IMG/VR virus record: IMGVR_UViG_3300037507_002241
Location: 1 to 38,123 of that record
Length of the DNA stretch: 38,123 nt
Source: a virus
Reading direction: 5' to 3' (one strand)
The first letter of the stretch is position 1, and the number at the start of each line of letters is the position of its first letter. Below, piece after piece: positions 311 through 38,123 of the stretch. Both the position numbers and the translations under genes were made by a program. The notes beneath the pieces were generated by a model, which worked only from the letters and a program-made list of their open reading frames with translations, did no database searches and had not been told where the DNA came from.

Positions 311-739
311 TTAGCCGCTCTTAACTTCCCAGTGAAACGGGAACCGATACGGCCCGACCCGCTCCTCGTCTGGGTTTGCGGGGTCGTAAGGCCGCGACGG
401 CATATTCAATATCGCCGCCTCGCGATGGCCGTGGCATGGCGTGAATCCGTGGTAAATGCCTGGCGGGATGGTCAGAAGCTGCGGGTGGTCGGCGGCAAGG
501 ATAACCGTCTGCCCCTCGCCCGTGGCTGCGTCGAATAGGCCAACCTTGGCCGCACCGGCTACGCAATACCAGCGGTCCCACTGCTCACGGTGGCGGTGCC
601 ACGCCTTGATGACGCCCGCCGAGGCCGTGGTGATGTAGGCTTGGCCAAAGCCATGCGCGTCATCGGTGGCGCGGTAGATTTCGGTGAGCCTCCCGCGCTC
701 ATCGAGGTGGGCGGTCAGTGGGCGGATCTCGGCTAACAT
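311..739 (-). CDS. RmlC-like cupin, putative nucleotide-sugar 3,5-epimerase
   Basis: About 142 aa with the dTDP-4-dehydrorhamnose 3,5-epimerase pattern. There is a His-rich strand AWHRHREQWDRWYCV, where RmlC carries its catalytic His. This is followed by LTIPPGIYHGF, matching the family's IPEGFAHGF strand, and by a C-terminal PYDPANPDEERVGP resembling the Y-x-P-x-x-E closing motif. RmlC makes dTDP-L-rhamnose precursors; this short version could also be a FdtA/WxcM-type ketoisomerase-like cupin. ATG 739 overlaps the stop of the upstream glycosyltransferase gene (ATGTTAG); a TTG at 748 is a less likely start. The pairing with a glycosyltransferase suggests that the phage tailors a sugar donor for its own use. 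Such genes are cargo, not core tail genes. Confidence 0.8.
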   Translation of the reverse strand: MLAEIRPLTAHLDERGRLTEIYRATDDAHGFGQAYITTASAGVIKAWHRHREQWDRWYCVAGAAKVGLFDAATGEGQTVILAADHPQLLTIPPGIYHGFTPCHGHREAAILNMPSRPYDPANPDEERVGPYRFPFHWEVKSG

Positions 740-1755
740 GGCATCCAAGGCTGTTGCCGCTGGCGAAGGTGGCCGCGATACTCCCCTTCCGTTTCGTGAT
801 AGGCCCGGTGGTGGACGCTCTCGCCCTTGGCGTCACGCTTCACATGATCCGCCGCCGTGTGAGGAATAGCCGCAATCCGTAGGCCGTTCGGGTGCCAGCG
901 GTGCCAGCAGAGGAATAAATCCTGCGTTCCCCTGCCGTCGTAGCCCTCAAAGGTGGCCAGCGCCAAAGCCCGTGCCGACATTAGCGTGCAGCCGAGGCCG
1001 CACCAGTCAGACGGCACGATAGCCCCGCGCCCGATGCCAGGATAAGCGAAGTCCATCCAACCGCGCCTGCGCCAGCCGTGTTTGCCGCTCACCTCAAAGA
1101 CGTTGCCGTCTGGCGGGCATTTCTTCACCCGCTCGGCCAGTCGCCCGAGGCGCTTGCCCTCCTTCTCGCCGATGTCCTTGTCCTTGCAGTCCTTCAGCCG
1201 GGCGCGGCAGGCTTCCAGCGCCCGCACAAGGCGCGGCGGCAGCTTGCGCTCATCTTCAATAAAATCTTCACAAATAGGATTTCTCGGCGTGCCGTTGCCT
1301 CCGAGGAACAGGCCGTTGGGATAGGTGACTGCGGCCACATGGTAAAACGGCGACCCGTCCTCAGTCGGCATGGCCAGCGCCCACTCGGCCACACGCAAAG
1401 CATCCGGCGGCACGAGGTTGTCGGCCTCCACGGACCACAAGGCGCTGGCACGAATCTTGCGCGCTAAGGCAAAGGCCGCGCCCTGCAATGCGGCGATACG
1501 CATTTGCGCGGGTTCTTTGTAATTCTTGCCCTCCACCCCGCCGTCCTCGAGCGGCAGGGTTATGGCTGCGATTTTCCACCCCTCGGGCAATTCGTGCCGG
1601 GCCGCTTCTACGGCCTTCTTGGCATCGTCGGACTCGTCGGTGGCTAGGATGAAATGCGCCTCGGCGTGGTGCCCGGCGGCGGCGGTGACGCGCCTAAGGA
1701 ACTGGGGCCAGCAGTGAAAATAGCTCTTGGTTGCGTATGTTGCGATGGCCAGCAC
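733..1755 (-). CDS. GT-A-type glycosyltransferase
   Basis: 340 aa from GTG 1755. There is an N-terminal Rossmann-like start (LAIATYATKSYFHCWPQFL), then a central WSVEADNLVPPDAL in which E-A-D takes the DxD metal-binding position of GT-A enzymes, and PSDWCGLGCTLMSARAL, a usual acceptor-side loop. A basic insert (KDCKDKDIGEKEGKRLGRLAERVKK) lies around residues 190-220. No membrane segment is present, so it should act in the cytoplasm. It follows the Ser/Thr/Tyr-rich tail protein by 18 bp and is coupled to the RmlC-like gene, so O-glycosylation of that tail protein is an attractive inference. TTTGACA (1772-1778, complement) is 16 nt before the GTG, and its TGA is the stop of the upstream gene. 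Confidence 0.8.
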   Translation of the reverse strand: MLAIATYATKSYFHCWPQFLRRVTAAAGHHAEAHFILATDESDDAKKAVEAARHELPEGWKIAAITLPLEDGGVEGKNYKEPAQMRIAALQGAAFALARKIRASALWSVEADNLVPPDALRVAEWALAMPTEDGSPFYHVAAVTYPNGLFLGGNGTPRNPICEDFIEDERKLPPRLVRALEACRARLKDCKDKDIGEKEGKRLGRLAERVKKCPPDGNVFEVSGKHGWRRRGWMDFAYPGIGRGAIVPSDWCGLGCTLMSARALALATFEGYDGRGTQDLFLCWHRWHPNGLRIAAIPHTAADHVKRDAKGESVHHRAYHETEGEYRGHLRQRQQPWMPC

Positions 1756-1773
1756 TCGGCAGCGCGGCGGGTG

Positions 1774-3867
1774 TCAAACCATAAACTCAGCATCCACCAT
1801 GCGCCCCGTGTCCACCGAAAGGGCTTGAGCGGAGTAAAGGTCGTAATAGCTATTTTTCTTTTCAATCCAATAAATGCCACTTTCTTGATCCATCGGCGAA
1901 GGAGGTATTACCCAAGGCATAAGAGCATAGCGACGAATCGCTGCGCTTTCATTGAAAGTGTAAGCGGTATCCCCCCCCGTAAAGAATGTTGTTTGTCCTT
2001 CAATAAGGTCGTAGTAAGCTCCAACCTCGGCTCCATCTACCACCGTCCATCCATCGGCAAAAGGTCCGCCGCCAAAATGAAGATAAGCGCTGGCCGGTCT
2101 AGATGTGCCGTCCTGTTGCTGAAAAGTGTCGCCTTCCACCCCCACCAAGGCGGTGGTTGTCGTGGTGTCTGTGCCGCTCAATGTTGTGTAGCTTAAGGAA
2201 TCGGAACTTAATGTCCATGTTTCGTTGCTCTTTACGGCCAGTGTTGTGACGCGCCTCCGAGAACCGTCGGCGGCGGTATAAGCAAAGCCCATGGCAAAAG
2301 TTTTGTCTGCGGTAAACCAGCCTCCTGCGCTACTGCCTACGGCCACGCCTGCTGTTCCCCATCGATATTGCTGCGTGGCAGGAAACCCCATGCCAACTAC
2401 GCCAAGTTGCACAGTCGATATTGTGGTGTTTCCACCCGGCAGCGTGGCGTAGCTGTATTCTTGTTCCTCCTCATCCGCGCTTCTGTCCGTAACGTCTGCG
2501 TATCCGACAGAAAATATGTTTTCGTAGCTTGACGAAGACCCTTGGTTGGTGCTGGTCTCGCTGGTCACATATGCGCCCACGGTGTAAGTTTCCAAAGAAC
2601 TGGTGGTTTTTGTTGCAACTACACCATGATGACTAACATTTGCCCACTGTCGAAAAACCGTCTCTGGCAAAAATCCGACATAGGGAACACTAGTGGTCGA
2701 TTTACCAATGCCGTAAGTTCTAAATGTGGTGGAAGTGTAAGAATTAAAGACTTGGTAACTCGTGGATGCTGATTGTGTCGTAAAACGCGTGGATATTTGC
2801 GCCGTAGTGCTTGGCGATATAACTGTGACGTTTGCTGGGCGTTGCAGCGAAAAAGTGCTATTTGAGCGCGCCTTAAATGACAGGCTTGCGGAAAGTCCTG
2901 GCGAAGACCAGCTCGATGTAGTTGTCACGCCAGACGCCGAAGTAATTCCTTCTGTGATGGCTGCGGTCGGATATAGCGTGACGCGAGTCGCTGTCGCCGC
3001 TATTGGCCGCGCTGCGGCATAACCATCCCACCCTGAACCCGGATTTGCAATATGATAAATAATCTCATCTTTCGCCGCCTGAACTACTGTGGCCCACGTT
3101 TGGTAGGTTGTGGTTTCTGAGTTTGTATTGCTGACCGTGGCAGCGTAATTTGCTGCCTCGGTAAACTCGTTGCCCTCATCGTCGTAGTTTACTGCCTCGG
3201 AGGTGCTGGACTGGGTTGTTGTATCAGCCTTTTCAATAGTTGTGTCAGCAGAGGCGCTATACGTGGTAAAAGCAAGATACCAATAAACATCTGATATTCC
3301 GGAACTGGTCTCAATGCCGGTGGTTTGCAAAAAGGAATTTGTGAAAGTAAAAGTTGTGTAAGTCGTGCCAATGCCAATGGCGTAAAATTCAGGAGCAATT
3401 TGTTCTGCGGTGGTTGATAAAATAGAATATGTCTGGTAGCCGACTATTGTCGTTGTCGAGGTTTGCGCGTAAGTCGTGAGCTGATGCGTTGAAGAGAAAG
3501 TTTCGCTGGTGGAATACGAGCTTGACCCACTAGTAGCGCTGGTAAAAGTTTGCGTTTCTGTAACGTCATTACCGCTTTCGTCTTCGGAGATGTTTATTTG
3601 TGTGCTGCTGAATGAATTAGTGTATGTGCTCGAACTAAAATAACTGCTGGAATACTCGGTTGATTGAAACCCATACCCAGAATACTCGTAAGAATAAAAG
3701 GTTGATTCGCTTGATATGCTGCTGGAGGCCTTTTCCGTCAGACCGCTGTAGGTAGGGTTGAATTCAGCATGGCTGCTTGTTGCAGATCTAGTGTATGACT
3801 CCGTGCGTGAAATAAAGCTGGAAGAGCTTAACCCCTCATAAGTCGTTGGTATGTGCCACGAAATCAT
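1774..3867 (-). CDS. Ser/Thr/Tyr-rich tail tip or fibre protein
   Basis: 697 aa from ATG 3867, which overlaps the stop of the upstream gene as ATGA. The N-terminal ~280 residues are extremely rich in Ser, Thr and Tyr (runs such as SSSISSESTFYSYEYSGYGF). The C-terminal ~350 residues look more globular and beta-rich (GFLPETVFRQWANVSHHG, AYLHFGGGPFADGWTVVDG) and end with IYWIEKKNSYYDLYSAQ. No known domain is recognised. It occupies the lambda K/I/J region downstream of the tape measure, so a host-contacting tip or fibre role fits. The DNA is visibly more AT-rich than the flanking tail genes, suggesting exchange. The glycosyltransferase directly downstream makes it the obvious protein substrate candidate. 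Confidence 0.75.
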   Translation of the reverse strand: MISWHIPTTYEGLSSSSFISRTESYTRSATSSHAEFNPTYSGLTEKASSSISSESTFYSYEYSGYGFQSTEYSSSYFSSSTYTNSFSSTQINISEDESGNDVTETQTFTSATSGSSSYSTSETFSSTHQLTTYAQTSTTTIVGYQTYSILSTTAEQIAPEFYAIGIGTTYTTFTFTNSFLQTTGIETSSGISDVYWYLAFTTYSASADTTIEKADTTTQSSTSEAVNYDDEGNEFTEAANYAATVSNTNSETTTYQTWATVVQAAKDEIIYHIANPGSGWDGYAAARPIAATATRVTLYPTAAITEGITSASGVTTTSSWSSPGLSASLSFKARSNSTFSLQRPANVTVISPSTTAQISTRFTTQSASTSYQVFNSYTSTTFRTYGIGKSTTSVPYVGFLPETVFRQWANVSHHGVVATKTTSSLETYTVGAYVTSETSTNQGSSSSYENIFSVGYADVTDRSADEEEQEYSYATLPGGNTTISTVQLGVVGMGFPATQQYRWGTAGVAVGSSAGGWFTADKTFAMGFAYTAADGSRRRVTTLAVKSNETWTLSSDSLSYTTLSGTDTTTTTALVGVEGDTFQQQDGTSRPASAYLHFGGGPFADGWTVVDGAEVGAYYDLIEGQTTFFTGGDTAYTFNESAAIRRYALMPWVIPPSPMDQESGIYWIEKKNSYYDLYSAQALSVDTGRMVDAEFMV

Positions 3868-4493
3868 GCCGGTCCAAGATAATAGTAAATAGTGTAAGGG
3901 CTGACTCCTGGTTCTGGATTTACCGCGTCCCCAACCAACCATGCCCGTGGGCTTAGTTGAATTTGCCCGCTGCCGATAACTCTCCAAGCAGTGCCCTCAG
4001 TAAACAGGCCAAACAAATATTCAATATTTGTTTCGATGCCAAACTGCACCGGCTCTTGAATTGCTGGCGGCGTGTCGTCAATCTCAATCGTCACACCCGT
4101 GACCGCCTCACCGTCCGTAGCAATCACCGCCTTGGCGTAAAACAGCCCCGTCCCAGCTACCTCCTCCTCGATGTCCCAGTTGCTTGGCAGGATGCCGTTA
4201 AGCGTGCCGGGGCGCACACGCAGGATATACGGCGGGTTCTCGTCCTCGGGGTCGGCGTCAGGGTCGGGCGTGGCGATTAAGTCCCAGGGTTGGGGGGTGG
4301 TTGGGGTTGAGGTGCCGCCACTTTGAGGTGCAACCACAATCTCTGTTCCTCCGGGCAGCTTTTTGAACGTGCCGTTGACTACCCGCGTAATCCGCAGGCT
4401 TTCCAGCTCGCGCAGGATGCGATTGAGGGTGTCGGAACTAAGCTGGCGATCCAGCGGCTGCCGAGGGCGAAACTCGCGGATGCCGTGTTGCAT
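3864..4493 (-). CDS. Tail tip-associated protein, unknown
   Basis: 209 aa from ATG 4493 (MQHGIREFRPRQPL); longer upstream starts would run into the preceding gene. The N-terminal ~45 residues are charged and helical. A Pro/Thr/Asp-rich linker follows around residues 60-90 (SGGTSTPTTPQPW, then DPDADPEDENPPY), then a beta-rich domain with VTGVTIEIDDTPPAIQEPVQFG. The ending PYTIYYYLGPA overlaps the next start by ATGA, so it is translationally coupled to the Ser/Thr/Tyr-rich protein. The order tape measure - 229 aa - this - fibre suggests a baseplate or tip component. I recognise no family. Confidence 0.75.
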   Translation of the reverse strand: MQHGIREFRPRQPLDRQLSSDTLNRILRELESLRITRVVNGTFKKLPGGTEIVVAPQSGGTSTPTTPQPWDLIATPDPDADPEDENPPYILRVRPGTLNGILPSNWDIEEEVAGTGLFYAKAVIATDGEAVTGVTIEIDDTPPAIQEPVQFGIETNIEYLFGLFTEGTAWRVIGSGQIQLSPRAWLVGDAVNPEPGVSPYTIYYYLGPA

Positions 4494-4495
4494 GG

Positions 4496-5185
4496 TTATT
4501 CGTAGATGTCGAAGTCTGCGTTCCAGCCTCGCGGGCCACTGGCCAGCCATTCGCGGGTCACGCGCCAGAAGCTGTTGCCGCTGTCGGGTTCATAGACCTT
4601 CTGTGCGCGCAAACCGATTTGCAGCCAGTTGGAGCCTTGGCGCAAGTTAGGTGCGTCGGCGGGCGGGCGATCTACGGAACAAAGTTCGTTGAGATCGGGC
4701 TTTGTGGTTTCGTCAAAGGTTTCTGAGTAAGTGACGCCGCTCGGGGTGTAGTAATGCGTTACTCCTTTGAGCATTAGCTGATAAAGTTCTTGTGCTGCCG
4801 TCAGGGCCGCCCCCGTGCCGGTAAAGCTTGGCGTGCTGCCGCTGCTAAGTGACGAGCGAATCGCGGCAAGGTCGGCGTCGCTGACAGTGCCGCCGCCATC
4901 GCCTCCGTTAAACTTGGGATGCGTCTCGATGGGTTCCTGCGCGGCTTGGCCGTTGATTTGGATTTGCGCGTCACCGGGCGCGCCGCCGCTGGACTCAAAG
5001 GTGTAAACGTAGTCCCGCCCGCCATCTGGGCGGATGGTGTATTCGTTTGAAACCATCCGCATTCCTGACGGCGCGGACGGCGCGGTGGCCTCGCTATCAT
5101 CGGTAACGCTAACAGGGATCTGCACGATCCTGCGTCCGTCAGGCGTGATCGTGCTGCGGTATCCGGCGGTGAGAAAAGAGGCCAT
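4496..5185 (-). CDS. Tail protein downstream of tape measure, unknown
   Basis: 229 aa from ATG 5185, four bases after the tape measure stop. Beta-rich N-terminus (SFLTAGYRSTITPDGRRIVQIPVSV), a Gly/Asp loop (KFNGGDGGGTVSDADL) near residue 95, then a Trp-containing C-terminal domain (RQGSNWLQIGLRAQKVYEP, NSFWRVTREWLASGPRGWNADFD). In siphophages the first gene after the tape measure is usually the distal tail protein or gpM-like tip protein, so that is the positional guess. No motif confirms it. Confidence 0.7.
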   Translation of the reverse strand: MASFLTAGYRSTITPDGRRIVQIPVSVTDDSEATAPSAPSGMRMVSNEYTIRPDGGRDYVYTFESSGGAPGDAQIQINGQAAQEPIETHPKFNGGDGGGTVSDADLAAIRSSLSSGSTPSFTGTGAALTAAQELYQLMLKGVTHYYTPSGVTYSETFDETTKPDLNELCSVDRPPADAPNLRQGSNWLQIGLRAQKVYEPDSGNSFWRVTREWLASGPRGWNADFDIYE

Positions 5186-5189
5186 AATA

Positions 5190-6803
5190 TTAAGCGGGCA
5201 TCAACGTGCCGTTTCCACTGCGGATGTAGTTGATTCCTGCGGCAATGGTTTCAAGGTAGCCATTGGATTTTTTTTGCTCGCGGACGGCTTCAGCGGCAGG
5301 GTTGGCCGCGTCGGAGAAGCGGGCGAAGGCCGCGCCGCCGCCGACCTTCTGCAAGCTCTGAGCGATGATGCCGGTGTTGCTTTTGCCCGCCTGCCCTTCC
5401 ATGTCTTCCATCAGCGGCGTCTGAGTCTTGGTCGCTTCAAAGCGCGAGCGCACCGCTTCGCGGTTGGCTTCCATCTGCGTGGTGATCTCTCCGACAAGGC
5501 CGTCGCGGGCCGCTTGCAATTCGGTGGTGTCGATGGTTTCGCCCGCTTGCCCCATTGCCGCAGCTGCTGCCGTGATCGCATTGTCGAAGCTCTGGGCAAT
5601 GCGCTCGCGCACTTGGGCTAGTGGGCCGCTTAAAGCGTCTGACGCGGCGGCTCCGCGCTCTGCGGCCCCAGCGTCCATTTGTGCCGCGCTTTCGCGGTAT
5701 CCTTCGGCCAGCCCTGCGGCCCCGCCGAATCCTGGCACATTGCTGACGGCATCGAGCAGGGCGGCGGCGGCACGCTGGATGACGGCGGCGAACTTCATGG
5801 CAGCGGCAAGGAGTCCATTGCCTACCCCCGCCCAAAACTCAGCCTTGGTGACAATCCCCAAAAGGGTGACGAACTCGGAGGGTATGTCGATTAGGCGCTG
5901 GGCCAAGAAGGCAACCATGCCAGAAATTCCCTGCACCAACAGATTGATAAACTGCGCTCCCGACAGCTTGAGTTGCGCGGACAAAATGTTCCCAAGGTTG
6001 CCCGAGGTAATCACCGTCAGACCAAAGGCAATCGCATTGCCCAGGTCTTGCCCGAGGCCCGAAAGGTCAATGCCGTCAGCGGCCTCGAGCAGAGGCATGA
6101 GTGCGGGAACCAGCGTGTCGGCCACCCCGACAAAGAATCCCTGCATCTTGGTGGCCACGCTGCCGAGGATGTCGGATGCTTGATCAAAGAGATTGGCGTT
6201 GCGGGTCAGGATGTCGGCCTGATCGCCCACGCTGCGGGCAGCCTCGGCCATTGCTCCCGAGTTTGCAAAGAGGGTAAGCATCTCGCCGCCCGACTTTCCA
6301 AAGATCTGCATGGCAGCGGCAGCCCGGCCCGCTGGATCGGGTATGCTGTTGATGGCCTGCCCGATTGCCGAAAATTGTGATGAGGCATCCATGCCGCGCA
6401 GCCCATCCACTGATATGCCAAGCATCTTGAATGCTTCAGCGGCTGGACCCGTGCCGTCGCCCGCTTCAACCAGGGCGCGCTGCATCTTGTTGATTGATGG
6501 CCCCACCTTCTCGGCGGATAGCCCGTTGCGGGCAAAGGCTTCTTGCAGGATGCGAAGCTGGCCAGCGGCCACGCCTGTCCGCGTAGAGAGGTCTGAGAGA
6601 GCGCCTCCGAGGTCGAGCGCGCCCTTGATGCCCACGGCTAACCCTGCGGCAGCAGCAGCGGCAGCGGCAAAGCCTGCGGCCACCCCGCCCAATACGGCAG
6701 GCCCGGCAGCGGCTTTGAATTTGGCCATCCCGCTTTCGGCGGATTTGATCCCTCGGTTAAATCCCGAGGTGTCCAGAGTTAGCTTGGTTGATACCGTAGC
6801 CAT
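5190..6803 (-). CDS. Tail tape measure protein
   Basis: 537 aa. Starts with MATVSTKLTLDTSGFNRGIKSAESGMAKFK, the usual tape-measure opening in which a TKLTLDTSGF strand precedes a coiled coil. A hydrophobic Ala/Gly segment follows at ~33-60 (PAVLGGVAAGFAAAAAAAAG), then long Ala-rich helices. A second hydrophobic block lies at ~255-330 (ISGMVAFLAQRLIDIPSEFVTLL), with an Ala/Glu-rich coiled-coil tail. The protein sets tail length; at about 1.5 Angstrom per residue it predicts a tail near 80 nm, short for a siphovirus. The sequence signature and its place after the G/GT chaperones support the call. Start ATG 6803 is 1 bp after the preceding stop. Confidence 0.93.
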   Translation of the reverse strand: MATVSTKLTLDTSGFNRGIKSAESGMAKFKAAAGPAVLGGVAAGFAAAAAAAAGLAVGIKGALDLGGALSDLSTRTGVAAGQLRILQEAFARNGLSAEKVGPSINKMQRALVEAGDGTGPAAEAFKMLGISVDGLRGMDASSQFSAIGQAINSIPDPAGRAAAAMQIFGKSGGEMLTLFANSGAMAEAARSVGDQADILTRNANLFDQASDILGSVATKMQGFFVGVADTLVPALMPLLEAADGIDLSGLGQDLGNAIAFGLTVITSGNLGNILSAQLKLSGAQFINLLVQGISGMVAFLAQRLIDIPSEFVTLLGIVTKAEFWAGVGNGLLAAAMKFAAVIQRAAAALLDAVSNVPGFGGAAGLAEGYRESAAQMDAGAAERGAAASDALSGPLAQVRERIAQSFDNAITAAAAAMGQAGETIDTTELQAARDGLVGEITTQMEANREAVRSRFEATKTQTPLMEDMEGQAGKSNTGIIAQSLQKVGGGAAFARFSDAANPAAEAVREQKKSNGYLETIAAGINYIRSGNGTLMPA

Positions 6804-9965: not shown

Positions 9966-11672
9966 CTACCACCCAGCGGCCACGGCATCTGGAGCTACCC
10001 GCTCAAAGACTGCCCTGCCCCGGCGCTCGGCCTCGGGATTTTGCTGACGCATATACTCGGCGTCCGACTTGGCCCCAGTGAAAAGCGGATGGTCGTGGTA
10101 GAAATTGATATGCCTGCCGTCCTTAACCACCCCTTCTTTGTAGGCCCGCCAACTCCATTCGGTGTCGCTCCAGTAGCCATCAAACTCAGGGTTGAAAAGC
10201 CATTTGCGGCCCGCCCAATAGGACCAGTTGAAGCAGGGCATGACCATGATCTGATCTTTGCGAAATCCATCAAAGACGTGGAGGACGGTCGCCTTGCCTT
10301 TGTTTGGCTCCATCGCCTGCACGATCTGCTCGTCCCAGCCGTGCGGCGGGTAGCAATCGTCCTGGGCAATCAAGATGATCTTGGCCGACTCGGCTGCGGC
10401 CTTGGCGGCGGCGTTGTAGTTGGCCACGGCGGATGAGTGACCCTCCGGCACGGCGGCACTGACGGCGTGAGGATAGTGCTTGATGCCATCAATCACCGCC
10501 TGATCGGCCTCATTGACTCCAAACCAATACGCGATCAGCTCGGGGCGAGCGGCCCGCTCTAAGTAAAGCTCCCGCATTTTGATAGCCTGCTCGGGGCGGC
10601 ACGTCGGGTGGCCGACTGCAATGCGTGGCCGGTGGCGGCGATGGTATTCCCGGCGGATCTTGTTAGCCTTTTCGGTGCGCCCGGCCTTGGCCAGTGCGGC
10701 ACACTTCAAATCGTGCGCCCGCCATCCGTAGAGGCTGGCATCGTGAATCCATGATGCGTCATCGGGGTCTTCGTGCGCCTCCATGTTGGCACACCACGCC
10801 ACGGCCTTGGACGCATCGCCTCGGGCTAGATGCACCTTGGCCAGTTCGGCATACCCTTCCCTGCGGTGCGGCATTAGGCGGACGGCCTCAAGCAGCGGGC
10901 GCTCGGCCTCCTCGATGTCCTTGAGCCAGCGGCCAATCGACAGATAGGCCAAATACTTTTCCTCCTTGGCCAAATCATCCCGCCCTGTGGCGACCACGGC
11001 GGCGGTCAAGGCCCCGGTGATGTCGCCCTGCATCTCGCACTCGCGGAAAAGAAACCACCACTCGCGTCCCGTGCGCTTGTCCTCGGGGATGGCGGTTAGG
11101 ATGCGCTTGTTGCGCTCTACGCTGCCGCGCTTGTTGACCGCTGGCATATGCACCACTTGAAGCTCTTGGCACCACGCGGCGTGCGTGTCGGGCTTGACCT
11201 CGATGTCTTCGTGGATGCAGTTGATCCATTTGTCGTAGACCTCCCTGTGGACGAGGCGGATGCGGCGGGCATAGCTGCCCTGCATTGATGTGACGTAGGG
11301 CGCGTAGACGGCCTCTTTGGCGTCCATCTTGCCCGCTCGTATCTCGGCCAGAACTTCTGCGCCTGTGGGGGCCAGCAAATCGTCGCAATCGGCCCACATG
11401 AGCCAATCGGCATCGGCGGGGGCAAGGGCAAAGGCTGCGTTGCGGGCGGCGCAAAAAGAATCGACGTGCGGCCAATCGTTGCCGGGGGCGTTAAGATACT
11501 CGCCCGTGATGCACCCGCGCGCCTTGGCGATTTCAAGGGTGGCGTCGGGCGGCTGGTTGCCGATGGCGCGGACTACGCTGATTGAATCAACGTGCGGCTG
11601 GAAGCTATCGAGAAAGCGGGTGATGTAGTCCGCTTCGTTTCCACAAATGATCCCGAGGTGAATTTTCGGCAC
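9966..11672 (-). CDS. Two-domain glycosyltransferase inside the head operon
   Basis: About 568 aa from GTG 11672 (a TTG at 11678 is also possible; no convincing Shine-Dalgarno). N-terminal GT2-type domain: IHLGIICGNEADYITRFLDSF, then ADWLMWADCDDLLAP with a D-x-D/D-D metal motif near residue 95, and VYDKWINCIHEDI. The middle (about 240-350) has TPR-like helical pairs (GYAELAKVHLARGDASKAVAW). The C-terminal ~220 residues form a second GT-A-like domain: RPRIAVGHPTCRPEQAIKMR, AKIILIAQDDCYPPHGWDEQ, and FDGYWSDTEWSWRAYKEG. There is no membrane segment. Lying between major capsid and connector, it is probably expressed late with virion proteins. The likely acceptor is a capsid or tail protein, which is inference. 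Confidence 0.85.
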   Translation of the reverse strand: MPKIHLGIICGNEADYITRFLDSFQPHVDSISVVRAIGNQPPDATLEIAKARGCITGEYLNAPGNDWPHVDSFCAARNAAFALAPADADWLMWADCDDLLAPTGAEVLAEIRAGKMDAKEAVYAPYVTSMQGSYARRIRLVHREVYDKWINCIHEDIEVKPDTHAAWCQELQVVHMPAVNKRGSVERNKRILTAIPEDKRTGREWWFLFRECEMQGDITGALTAAVVATGRDDLAKEEKYLAYLSIGRWLKDIEEAERPLLEAVRLMPHRREGYAELAKVHLARGDASKAVAWCANMEAHEDPDDASWIHDASLYGWRAHDLKCAALAKAGRTEKANKIRREYHRRHRPRIAVGHPTCRPEQAIKMRELYLERAARPELIAYWFGVNEADQAVIDGIKHYPHAVSAAVPEGHSSAVANYNAAAKAAAESAKIILIAQDDCYPPHGWDEQIVQAMEPNKGKATVLHVFDGFRKDQIMVMPCFNWSYWAGRKWLFNPEFDGYWSDTEWSWRAYKEGVVKDGRHINFYHDHPLFTGAKSDAEYMRQQNPEAERRGRAVFERVAPDAVAAGW

Positions 11673-11736
11673 TGACAAAAAGGAAGGGCCACGGCGAGTG
11701 GAACCGTGACCCCTTGGGTCGAAACCCTAAGTGAAA

Positions 11737-11779: not shown

Positions 11780-12631
11780 CTAAATGACGAGCGCCATCGT
11801 GTTGCTGGTGAGGCCGGGGGCCGCTCCGAACATCAATTCGATGGAGGCGTTGACTTGGCGATTGTTGGTCGAACCCCACACGTTCCAGTAGACCGAGAGG
11901 CCCAACTGTTCGATGGTGACAACCTGATCGCTGATCTGGAACTGCGAGGAAACTGCAGGGTCGATCATCGGCTTGGCCGAGGCCACGCAAACCGCTTCGC
12001 GCGAGCAGGCAAAGCCGTCGAGGCCGCTGACTGCGCCGCTGAACGAATTGGCGTAGAACACACCTTGGTCGAATCCGTAGGCTCCGTTTTGGAGCGGCAG
12101 GAAGTCGGCGTTGGTGGGGATGAGCGCCGAGTAGATCGCCGGGGTGACAACCAAACCCTTGTTGGTGGACTTGCTGATCGCGCTCCACAGAGAGGCCAGA
12201 TGGCCGCTGCCGGGCGTGATCGTGGTGGTCGTAACCGTGGCCGCGCCAAAGTTCACCGTGGTGATCGGGGTGATCGCCAAGCTCCAGAGCTTGTCGGCCA
12301 GCGCATCCACGTTGATCTTGATGAGATTCTCAAGGCGATGACCGAGGGCGAGATCCGCCTGATCGATGCCGAAGAACTGCACGACGTGGTCGAGCGTGAC
12401 AGTGGCTTTGCCAATGGTCACGGACGAGCCGGGTTCAAAGTTGGTCGGGTTGACGGAAGTCGCGGCGGTAGCCGAGACGATGGGAACCTGAATGGTGTCT
12501 TTAGCTTTCTTGACCTCATTGCTGAAGTCAGATGTGAAAAGGCGCAGGGGCGCGAGGCGGTTAGCCAAGACGGTCTGAACCTGTTGCGAAATGGTGGAGA
12601 CCACCAGTCCGCTGTCGAATACGTTAGCCAT
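11780..12631 (-). CDS. Major capsid protein
   Basis: 283 aa: MANVFDSGLVVSTISQQVQT, LANRLAPLRLFTSDFSNEVK, TIQVPIVSATAATSVNPTNF, then VTLDHVVQFFGIDQADLALG and a beta-rich C-terminus ending GAAPGLTSNTMALVI. The LANRLAPL / F-T-x-D-F-S opening is typical of P22/HK97-fold coat proteins. It directly follows the protease-scaffold gene, as lambda E follows C/Nu3. No small decoration protein gene (lambda D) lies between them. The leader is A/C-rich with no Shine-Dalgarno (AACCAAAAAT before ATG). High expression is expected; a strong hairpin follows the stop. Confidence 0.85.
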   Translation of the reverse strand: MANVFDSGLVVSTISQQVQTVLANRLAPLRLFTSDFSNEVKKAKDTIQVPIVSATAATSVNPTNFEPGSSVTIGKATVTLDHVVQFFGIDQADLALGHRLENLIKINVDALADKLWSLAITPITTVNFGAATVTTTTITPGSGHLASLWSAISKSTNKGLVVTPAIYSALIPTNADFLPLQNGAYGFDQGVFYANSFSGAVSGLDGFACSREAVCVASAKPMIDPAVSSQFQISDQVVTIEQLGLSVYWNVWGSTNNRQVNASIELMFGAAPGLTSNTMALVI

Positions 12632-20405: not shown

Positions 20406-20568
20406 GTTTTTTCGCGTCGATATTGCGACGAATGAATTGCATTTCCTCACGAAGCAGGCGGCTTTGATGCTCTAACTCGCAAAGCCTTTTGTGCATTGCG
20501 GCGAATGAAGCAATCCACGGCGGAAGCTCTGCAGTGTCTTCTTTATCGCTTATGCTGCCTTGCGCCAT
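20383..20568 (-). CDS. Small coiled-coil protein, 61 aa
   Basis: MAQGSISDKEDTAELPPWIA then SFAAMHKRLCELEHQSRLLR and EEMQFIRRNIDAKKHDAHRT: a single long heptad helix. It overlaps the glycosyltransferase gene by 19 bp and the terminase start by 23 bp. Could be a terminase accessory factor; that is a positional guess. Confidence 0.6.
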   Translation of the reverse strand: MAQGSISDKEDTAELPPWIASFAAMHKRLCELEHQSRLLREEMQFIRRNIDAKKHDAHRTT

Positions 20569-21410
20569 TTCTCGTCTATGATCTTGGGGCAGGCGTTGTT
20601 CCACTTAATGTTGTGATGAATGCGCCTGTGCGTTGACCCAATCTCGGAAATGATTGTGCAAGACGGGGCATAGAGAACTGTATAGAAGCTCTTCACGTAG
20701 GTGCCGCTGCTTAAGTAAAGCTCGGTCATGCCACCTGCTGTCTGCTGTGTCGGCAGTTGTTGAATTGCAAGGTTAGGCACTTGCAAAAACAGGTGACCAC
20801 GTAGCCCCTCGCAAGTGTAGGTGCTAACGTCTTCGTTCATTCGTCCGAAGAATTTGAAGGGACGCTCCGTGCTACAAATCCATGTGTTCATGCACTTGCG
20901 TTTGAGAAAGAACTTTTGCGCTAGGCTCCCGTTTGCGCCACCTATAAAATCCCCTCCTTGCGCAAGAGCGATGCTTGTAGCCGGGGTGCTTTTGTAAAAC
21001 TCTAACAGCGCATCGAAAAGATCATCGAGTCTGCGAATATTTGTTTTATCGACATACTGCAAATGCTCGCCTGCCTTGTAGCGAAAATCTACGTAGTCAT
21101 CGTCTAACTGAATGAAGTATTTGTAGCCGAGTTCTTTGGCTACCTTAAAGCAGGCGTTGCGCGCGTAAACAATCGCCTTGCGATGCGCAAAGTTGTCGCC
21201 TGCGTCTGTTTCTTCGGCCATTGCTTTTTTGTCGAAGACATAGACTTGATCCCCGTAGAGCTTTCGATGCTCTTCGATAGTCTTGTCTTCGTTATCGACG
21301 AGGACGCAGATCGGCCCCGTGTATCCGTGACGCTTGAGCGACTTGTATGTGACAACCTTGTCCGGGCGTCCGTGCGTAAGGATAAACGCGATAAAGTCTT
21401 TATTCTTCAT
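20550..21410 (-). CDS. TET-associated-type glycosyltransferase (TAGT-like)
   Basis: 286 aa from ATG 21410. FILTHGRPDKVVTYKSLKRH, GPICVLVDNEDKTIEEHRKL, then DNFAHRKAIVYARNACFKVA, KELGYKYFIQLDDDYVDFRY: a GT-A fold whose LDDDY supplies the D-x-D metal site (~residue 122). Later SIALAQGGDFIGG and FFGRMNEDVSTYT follow. This is the pattern I recall for TAGT glycosyltransferases, phage enzymes proposed to glycosylate hydroxymethyl-pyrimidines in DNA. No TET/JBP dioxygenase is visible in this genome, so the acceptor is unclear. The gene overlaps ParB by 11 bp and lies inside the terminase cluster; it is visibly more AT-rich. Confidence 0.8.
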   Translation of the reverse strand: MKNKDFIAFILTHGRPDKVVTYKSLKRHGYTGPICVLVDNEDKTIEEHRKLYGDQVYVFDKKAMAEETDAGDNFAHRKAIVYARNACFKVAKELGYKYFIQLDDDYVDFRYKAGEHLQYVDKTNIRRLDDLFDALLEFYKSTPATSIALAQGGDFIGGANGSLAQKFFLKRKCMNTWICSTERPFKFFGRMNEDVSTYTCEGLRGHLFLQVPNLAIQQLPTQQTAGGMTELYLSSGTYVKSFYTVLYAPSCTIISEIGSTHRRIHHNIKWNNACPKIIDEKWRKAA

Positions 21411-22170
21411 CGCTGTTGTCCTGCATGTAGGTTTTGCGAATACTTTCGGACAGGCGCACATAGCCCTGTTCGATAGCCTTGTTAAAGTCGAGAATGACGA
21501 GGGCCGAGTCTTCCATTAGCTTTTGAACCTCCGGTTTTGAGTGCGCGTAGAAGTCGGCAACTTTGCCGAAGTCAAAAACGGTATGACGATGCGCTGCTGC
21601 GATGAGAAATGCTTTCGCGTCTTTCTCGATGTCAGCCTGCTCGATAGCAGCGAGCAGGCGTTCGGTTTTTTCCGAATGAAAAAGCTCGACGACCGCAGGC
21701 TTCGTCGGGCTTGGCTCGTAGGTCGGGGCTTCGATTTTGCGCGTGTAAGCCTCCTCTCCCGGCAGGGTTTCGCCCTCGTCCTGTAGCAGCGAGGCTAAAT
21801 CGTCTTTAGAGAACCCGACATCTTTCAGCCCGATTCCTTCCGCCGCCAATCCCTCAAGCTCCGCGCTCAATAGCTCGGTGTCCCACTCGGCCAGTTCCGC
21901 CATGCGGTTAATGCTGATCCGCAGAGCCTTAATGTCAGCCTCGCTCAAGTCATCACACAGAACGACCGGGACTTCCTTCATGCCGAGATGCTTTGCGGCC
22001 TTAACGCGCAGATGCCCGTCGATCAGTGAGCCGTCAGACTTCGCCAAGACCGGGACGCGAAAGCCGAAGCGTTTGATGGCCGAGGCCACCGTCTCAACGG
22101 CGTGATCGTTCTTTCGCGGGTTGCCCGCGTAGGGAATTAGTTTTTCAACTGATAGGTTTGTTGTTTTCAT
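21400..22170 (-). CDS. ParB/Srx-like nuclease-fold protein
   Basis: 256 aa from ATG 22170, with the Shine-Dalgarno-like AAAGGA 5 nt upstream. N-terminal ParB domain: VEKLIPYAGNPRKNDHAVET, then VPVLAKSDGSLIDGHLRVKA, AKHLGMKEVPVVLCDDLSEA and KALRISINRMAELAEWDTEL. The G-(S)-LIDGH-x-R motif is the ParB signature. The C-terminal ~100 residues are helical (LLAAIEQADIEKDAKAFLIA, VADFYAHSKPEVQKLMEDSA). Stand-alone phage ParB proteins often accompany DNA-modification or packaging genes. Here it overlaps TerS upstream by 26 bp and the glycosyltransferase downstream by 11 bp. Confidence 0.88.
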   Translation of the reverse strand: MKTTNLSVEKLIPYAGNPRKNDHAVETVASAIKRFGFRVPVLAKSDGSLIDGHLRVKAAKHLGMKEVPVVLCDDLSEADIKALRISINRMAELAEWDTELLSAELEGLAAEGIGLKDVGFSKDDLASLLQDEGETLPGEEAYTRKIEAPTYEPSPTKPAVVELFHSEKTERLLAAIEQADIEKDAKAFLIAAAHRHTVFDFGKVADFYAHSKPEVQKLMEDSALVILDFNKAIEQGYVRLSESIRKTYMQDNSDEE

Positions 22171-37746: not shown

Positions 37747-38123
37747 TTATTTGGTCGCTGTCAAAATTCCGTCGTTGTCCACTGTCACGGTCCACAGGCT
37801 TGAGTCAGGGGCCAGCAGCTTAAAGGACGCGGCGGCGGTTACCGTCGGCACACCCTCGCCTCCTCGGATGACATCGTTAAACACTGTCGCGGAGGTCGGC
37901 AGGGTGCTCGAAGTCGTGCCGCTTTCGGTCCACTCAATTTCGACCTTGGCCGAAATGCTGTCCTCGGTATCAAGCGGGAACTCCGCGTTGAGGTTGGTCG
38001 TGTTGAGGTTCAGGTCGAACTGGTAAATCGTGCTTGCCCCGGTGCCGCTCTTGGTAAACGCGCCGTCGTTGGCCAAAAACGCGCCAGCAAAGGTTTTCTT
38101 TAGGCCCATTTGCCCGGTGGCCC
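37747..38123 (-). CDS. C-terminal part of 175-aa virion protein (starts at 278 across the ends)
   Basis: The same reading frame as 1-278. On this linear piece the only visible ATG is 38109 (GLKKTFAGAFLANDGAF...), but the true start is 165 bp further upstream on the circle. C-terminal half: FDLNLNTTNLNAEFPLDTED, KVEIEWTESGTTSS and the ending SSLWTVTVDNDGILTATK. Beta-rich. TTTGACA (37759-37765, complement) within its end lies 22 nt before the next gene, the fibre. Confidence 0.85.
   Translation of the reverse strand, partial: ATGQMGLKKTFAGAFLANDGAFTKSGTGASTIYQFDLNLNTTNLNAEFPLDTEDSISAKVEIEWTESGTTSSTLPTSATVFNDVIRGGEGVPTVTAAASFKLLAPDSSLWTVTVDNDGILTATK
37997..38123. repeat. Terminal overlap, right copy
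   Basis: Identical to 1-127; see the left copy. Remove one copy to obtain the circular genome. Confidence 0.95.

What the first reader, a model, noticed from the sequence alone, without database searches (positions are those of the whole stretch)
311..3867. Ser/Thr/Tyr-rich tail protein beside a glycosyltransferase and a sugar epimerase
The 697-aa tail protein is extremely rich in hydroxyl residues and is followed immediately by a glycosyltransferase and an RmlC-like epimerase. The set reads like a tail O-glycosylation module that makes its own deoxysugar donor.
Basis: inference. Interest (0 to 1): 0.75.

Follow-up and report, generated by a model that had tools for sequence, protein, structure and literature searches.

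The report
Phage tail-protein sugar-coating gene cassette
A freshwater virus of bacteria carries a very serine/threonine-rich, fast-changing tail protein always paired with the same sugar-attaching enzyme (and often a sugar-reshaping enzyme), which suggests that these viruses decorate their own tails with sugars by an undescribed enzyme family; the sugar itself has not been seen.

Summary
In detail: three adjacent minus-strand genes encode a 697-aa protein with 39% Ser+Thr+Tyr, a 340-aa GT-A glycosyltransferase (GT) and a 142-145-aa RmlC-like cupin. The GT matches no Pfam, PHROG, NCBIfam or PDB sequence, but its predicted fold matches human collagen galactosyltransferase COLGALT1 (Z 19.9) and its DxD-like, G-loop, xED-like and C-His residues are invariant down to 43% identity. 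At least 144 stretches of IMG/VR viral contigs encode the GT. In all 81 examined loci with enough flank, and in four of five more remote ones, a Ser/Thr-rich tail gene adjoins it, although the rich proteins are mostly unrecognisable between phages. A podovirus-like lineage keeps cupin, GT and rich gene in a different layout. Searching from the gene upstream of the rich gene gave the same answer. The cupin is optional (about half); distant relatives occupy the RmlC slot in RmlA/RmlB/RmlD operons of other phages, supporting a 4-keto-deoxysugar role. But this complete genome has no RmlA or RmlB, so it does not make its own donor; it would edit the host's pool. Tail O-glycosylation is the best explanation (about 0.7). 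No glycan has been observed.

The parts
1774..3867 (-). Ser/Thr/Tyr-rich, hypervariable tail protein (697 aa), proposed glycan acceptor; start 'MISW..', C-terminal 'W..(K/R)N' motif shared with relatives
   Evidence: tail assignment by position just after the tape measure gene and its two downstream genes
733..1755 (-). GT-A-fold glycosyltransferase (340 aa, GTG start); ExD at E110/D112, G-loop C252-C256, xED-like Q278-D279, C-His H304
   Evidence: motif names from PMC7185993
311..748 (-). RmlC/Cap5F-like cupin, probable nucleotide-sugar epimerase or isomerase; probable start ATG at 739
3864..4496 (-). N1: conserved gene directly upstream of the rich gene; likely adaptor (inference); also precedes the rich gene in the podovirus-like lineage
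4496..5185 (-). tail-operon protein of unknown function between the tape measure gene and N1
5190..6803 (-). tape measure protein; places the cassette in the tail operon
   Evidence: phrog_8462, 4.6e-20

Best explanation
The rich gene, GT and cupin form a tail O-glycosylation cassette. The GT-A enzyme transfers a sugar from a host-supplied nucleotide sugar to many Ser/Thr (perhaps Tyr) side chains of the neighbouring tail protein, recognising composition or an extended chain rather than a fixed sequence. The cupin, where present, converts a host nucleotide-4-keto-6-deoxysugar into the form transferred, so it changes which sugar is used and is not essential. The rich protein changes fast, presumably because it is the exposed, host- or phage-facing part of the tail; the glycan would shield it or help it bind. 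Shown: gene order, composition, near-obligate pairing, cupin family and operon context of its relatives, lack of RmlA/RmlB; predicted: GT fold and active-site motifs. Inferred: the transfer reaction, the acceptor, the donor sugar and the purpose.
For: Pairing: an S/T-rich ORF adjoins the GT in all 81 loci with flank (S+T 0.21-0.39); in 67 of 74 scored loci it is the most S/T-rich ORF of 200 aa or more. Reverse search from N1: all loci with flank have a rich ORF plus GT. A second layout in L034-L047, with cupin-GT convergent to N1-rich. More divergent GTs (44-48% identical) still follow a rich ORF: L110, L300, L302. The rich protein is the least conserved of the cassette genes (median 10% of residues, found in 6 of 31 loci) while the GT keeps 85%. 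GT fold: COLGALT1 Z 19.9, rmsd 3.1, 237 aa, and LH3, both protein O-glycosyltransferases; catalytic motifs invariant. The GT and cupin have no membrane span by hydropathy. Accessory enzymes vary: DUF3431 gene, sulfotransferase. Cupin relatives lie with RmlA, RmlB and RmlD.
Against: No glycan, activity or virion proteome has been observed. The loci are related phages, many from overlapping freshwater samples, so the counts are not independent. The fold match shows the fold, not the acceptor; Mnn9, hyaluronan synthase and other GTs also score Z 17-18. The Ser/Thr-rich protein could be rich for structural reasons (beta fibre); its model is useless (pLDDT 33). In L303 the adjoining ORF is only moderately rich (0.19). 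One relative has a GT split by a stop (L304/L305).
Confidence: 0.7

Rival explanations
1. The GT modifies the host surface (O-antigen) to block superinfection, and sits beside the tail gene because both belong to a host-recognition island.
For: This is how GTs beside tail fibres were read in pelagimyophages (PMC7029224). The rich gene is hypervariable like a receptor-binding protein.
Against: The GT has no membrane spans. It is bound to one tail gene in two genome layouts. Its best fold neighbours are protein O-GTs.
Confidence: 0.13
2. The GT-fold protein is a dedicated chaperone or assembly factor for the rich protein, with no sugar transfer, like fibre-assembly genes that follow fibre genes.
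For: Immediate downstream position; near-obligate pairing. Catalytically dead GT-A chaperones exist (COSMC, described in PMC7185993).
Against: All four active-site motifs are invariant down to 43% identity, unlike COSMC, which lost its motifs. The cupin and other sugar enzymes accompany it.
Confidence: 0.1
3. The GT glycosylates another virion protein or modified DNA, and the Ser/Thr richness is a structural feature of a beta-rich fibre.
For: S/T-rich beta fibres exist without glycans (general knowledge). Another GT in this genome is of the DNA-modifying TAGT kind.
Against: The genome has separate GTs beside the major capsid gene and for the TAGT role; this GT tracks the rich gene, not those.
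Confidence: 0.07

Closest known systems
Virion glycosylation in mycobacteriophages (Freeman et al. 2023, seen here only as cited in PMC12619734 and PMC10568470)
   Same: Glycans are reported on capsid and tail proteins of phages.
   Different: There the glycans are reported at the C-termini of capsid and tail tube subunits. Here the presumed acceptor is a long, hypervariable Ser/Thr-rich tail protein, and the GT family has no match in any sequenced phage isolate searched.
Serine-rich repeat adhesins and SDR proteins with their own GTs in Gram-positive bacteria (general knowledge; SdgA/SdgB in PMC3794999, title and abstract only)
   Same: Ser-rich surface protein with a dedicated protein O-glycosyltransferase.
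   Different: No simple repeat, no accessory Sec system, presumed tail structural protein of a phage; no sequence relation was tested.
COLGALT1 / LH3 collagen glycosyltransferases
   Same: Best fold match of the GT model; protein O-glycosyltransferases.
   Different: 12-16% identity; no hydroxylysine substrate expected; similarity is of fold only.
dTDP-sugar 3,5-epimerases (RmlC), Cap5F C-terminal cupin, QdtA-type ketoisomerases
   Same: Sequence matches; cupin relatives stand in the RmlC slot of RmlA/B/D operons.
   Different: The window cupin scores below the RmlC family cut-off (25.9 of 27 bits) and its genome lacks RmlA and RmlB.

Membership tests
GT-A fold glycosyltransferase | Rossmann-like GT-A fold | tested here: met
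   AlphaFold2 model pLDDT 81, Z 16-20 to many GT-A enzymes
GT-A fold glycosyltransferase | DxD-like, G-loop, xED-like and C-His positions (PMC7185993) | tested here: met
   E110-x-D112, G253/G255, Q278-D279, H304 invariant in nine sequences down to 43% identity; assignment by sequence position, not by superposition
GT-A fold glycosyltransferase | sugar transfer activity | not testable with these tools
   needs an assay
RmlC (dTDP-4-dehydrorhamnose 3,5-epimerase) | match to PF00908 above its cut-off | tested here: not met
   25.9 bits against 27; distant relatives in L273 and L275 do pass it
RmlC (dTDP-4-dehydrorhamnose 3,5-epimerase) | encoded with RmlA, RmlB, RmlD | tested here: not met
   no PF16363 or PF00483 match in the window genome; met in relatives L274 and L275
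RmlC (dTDP-4-dehydrorhamnose 3,5-epimerase) | His-Asp dyad and Tyr of the active site | not tested
   H48 and H50 are invariant but no structural superposition was made
Polysacc_synt_C cupin (Cap5F C-terminal type) | match to PF14667 above its cut-off | tested here: met
   45.6 bits against 28.7
Virion-glycosylation cassette of a phage | GT gene linked to a structural gene in relatives | tested here: met
   81 of 81 loci with flank, two layouts, reverse search; that the rich gene is structural rests on position
Virion-glycosylation cassette of a phage | glycan on the structural protein that depends on the GT | not testable with these tools
   needs glycoproteomics or co-expression

The most novel reading that the evidence does not exclude
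A widespread, undescribed phage protein-O-glycosyltransferase family, shared by siphovirus-like and podovirus-like freshwater phages, that glycosylates tail proteins chosen by Ser/Thr composition rather than sequence, so that the tail protein can vary almost freely while staying a substrate; exchangeable cupin, second-GT or sulfotransferase genes change the sugar coat.
Probability: 0.5. Interest if true: 0.8.

Novelty: new variant of a known kind. Interest (0 to 1): 0.62.

Why it matters
Phage virion glycosylation is documented for few phages. This cassette, in well over a hundred uncultured viral contigs, pairs a strongly conserved enzyme with an almost freely varying, Ser/Thr-rich putative acceptor. 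If true, it gives a direct test of how a tail protein can diversify yet remain a substrate, and of what a sugar coat on a tail is for (adsorption, protection, competition). It also offers a compact, possibly promiscuous protein O-glycosyltransferase from a bacterial virus.

Tried and rejected
Structure of the rich protein: AlphaFold2 with 12 relatives gave pLDDT 33, unusable. GT against GenBank phages: no match with three different members. Rich protein by sequence in IMG/VR: one near-identical relative only. Own donor synthesis: rejected. Nucleotide bias as cause of the Ser/Thr richness: Ser uses both TCN (61) and AGY (46) codons and all four Thr codons are used, so not a codon artefact. S-T exchanges are enriched among mismatches (0.079 against 0.045 shuffled), but Ser-Thr exchange is common in proteins anyway, so not used as evidence. 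DGR-type diversification: considered, but no search for a reverse transcriptase was made. The Freeman et al. 2023 paper could not be read.

Full report
What is there. The window is an IMG/VR virus record with a 127-nt exact direct repeat at its ends, so it is a complete circularly permuted genome of 37,996 bp. Terminase, portal, major capsid protein (weak match), tape measure, amidase and a weakly matching integrase can be recognised, so it is a tailed phage; the tape measure suggests a siphovirus-like tail. On the minus strand, after the tape measure gene (5190-6803), come a 229-aa gene, N1 (3864-4496), the Ser/Thr/Tyr-rich protein (1774-3867), the GT (733-1755) and the cupin (311-748), followed by a gene that runs across the end of the record.

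The rich protein. 271 of 697 residues are S, T or Y (38.9%), against 15.1% in the other window genes examined. Both Ser codon classes and all Thr codons are used, so it is not a nucleotide artefact. It has no match in Pfam, PHROGs or NCBIfam and one near-identical relative in 2.9 million viral contigs by pattern scan. Aligned with position-equivalent proteins of other phages, it keeps a start 'MISW', a few internal motifs and a C-terminal 'W..RN'. 'Tail protein' rests on position beside N1 and the tape measure, not on homology to a known tail protein.

The GT. No library names it. An alignment of 32 relatives gave an AlphaFold2 model with pLDDT 81. Foldseek and VIA-align place it among GT-A enzymes, first human COLGALT1 (Z 19.9, rmsd 3.1, 237 residues, 14% identity), then Mnn9, LH3 and others at Z 18. 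By position in sequence and predicted structure, E110-x-D112 is the DxD-like motif, C252-C256 the G-loop, Q278-D279 the xED-like motif and H304 the C-His described as the GT-A core in PMC7185993. E110, D112, G253, G255, Q278, D279 and H304 are invariant across nine sequences down to 43% identity. No membrane span is evident. This makes an active sugar-nucleotide-dependent GT likely; it does not name the acceptor.

Do the GT and the rich gene belong together? IMG/VR holds at least 144 stretches that encode the GT; no phage isolate in the GenBank set does. In the window, 80 IMG/VR loci and two metagenome-assembled genomes, every one of the 81 loci with enough flanking DNA has an S/T-rich ORF directly beside the GT; the two without flank are L044 and L073. 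In 67 of 74 loci scored by one gene-calling rule it is the most S/T-rich ORF of 200 aa or more in the locus. These loci are related and partly duplicated, so the counts are not independent trials. Stronger are three contrasts. First, the rich proteins are mostly unrecognisable to each other (199 of 5,256 ordered pairs similar at 1e-5) while their composition and place persist. Within the closest group the GT keeps a median 85% identity, the cupin 77%, N1 53% and the rich protein 10%. Second, in a podovirus-like lineage (L034-L047; the morphotype is an inference from gene content) the cupin and GT lie on one strand and converge on N1 and the rich gene on the other, so the set survived rearrangement. 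Third, searching from N1 instead of the GT gave the same set in every locus with flank. Searching from distant cupins brought in phages (L270-L272, L298) in which a GT about 48% identical (L300, L302) again follows an S/T-rich ORF. An exception in degree is L303, where the neighbour is only 19% S+T.

The cupin. It matches Polysacc_synt_C above its cut-off and RmlC-type dTDP_sugar_isom just below; solved relatives are a dTDP sugar isomerase, QdtA and the Cap5F C-terminal domain. It is present in about half of the GT loci, so it is an accessory. Distant relatives (about 43% identical) in other phages sit between RmlA, RmlD and RmlB genes (L274, L275). In L274 no RmlC of the standard family was found in the 82-kb contig. 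That places this cupin family on 4-keto-6-deoxysugar nucleotides, by context. Whether the window protein is a 3,5-epimerase or a ketoisomerase is open.

Donor. PF16363 and PF00483 searches found no RmlB-type or RmlA-type gene in the window or in twelve relatives, while the control genomes all scored. The phage therefore depends on host nucleotide sugars; the cupin could only edit them.

Other decoration genes vary around the core: a DUF3431 gene between GT and cupin (L006), a sulfotransferase after the GT (L110). In the window a two-domain GT2 enzyme (9966-11678) sits beside the major capsid gene and is kept in relatives. This pattern fits a virion-decoration programme, by inference.

Verdict. 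Tail O-glycosylation by a new GT-A family acting on a hypervariable Ser/Thr-rich tail protein is the best explanation (0.7). Host-surface modification (as proposed for GTs in pelagimyophages, PMC7029224), a dead-enzyme chaperone, and a different target are the rivals. Phage virion glycosylation as such is known (Freeman et al. 2023 as cited in PMC12619734), so this is a new variant of a known kind. No glycan has been seen.

Noticed in passing
9966-11678 (-): Two-domain GT2-type glycosyltransferase (Pfam Glycos_transf_2 2e-6; PHROG glycosyltransferases for both halves) directly beside the major capsid gene 11780-12631; kept at 65-96% identity in seven close relatives, 37% in an eighth and about 30% in L270/L271. 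Possibly capsid glycosylation.
   Followed up: partly
20550-21419 (-): TET-associated glycosyltransferase (TAGT, 3.4e-33), the kind tied to DNA hypermodification, next to a ParB-like gene; absent from 15 related contigs searched.
   Followed up: partly
1-127 and 37997-38123: 127-nt exact terminal direct repeat: assembly of a circular or permuted genome.
   Followed up: yes
L110:9433-10221: Sulfotransferase gene (PF13469) shortly after the GT in a phage-like contig of a Betaproteobacteria MAG.
   Followed up: partly
L006:9008-9709: DUF3431 gene inserted between the GT and the cupin; similar 226-251-aa ORFs at the same place in L007, L010 and L016.
   Followed up: partly
L274:4363-7357 and L275:5153-8235: Other phages carry RmlA, RmlD and RmlB with this cupin in the RmlC position: a viral deoxysugar operon with a non-standard epimerase.
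   Followed up: partly
L304 / L305 (contig of L270): A GT relative whose reading frame is split by a stop after an S/T-rich ORF; sequencing error or loss not distinguished.
   Followed up: no
L280:9744-11764: Cluster of S/T-rich proteins with Ser-Asn/Ser-Gly repeats (up to 40% S+T) in a 65-kb phage that also encodes a distant GT and cupin.
   Followed up: no
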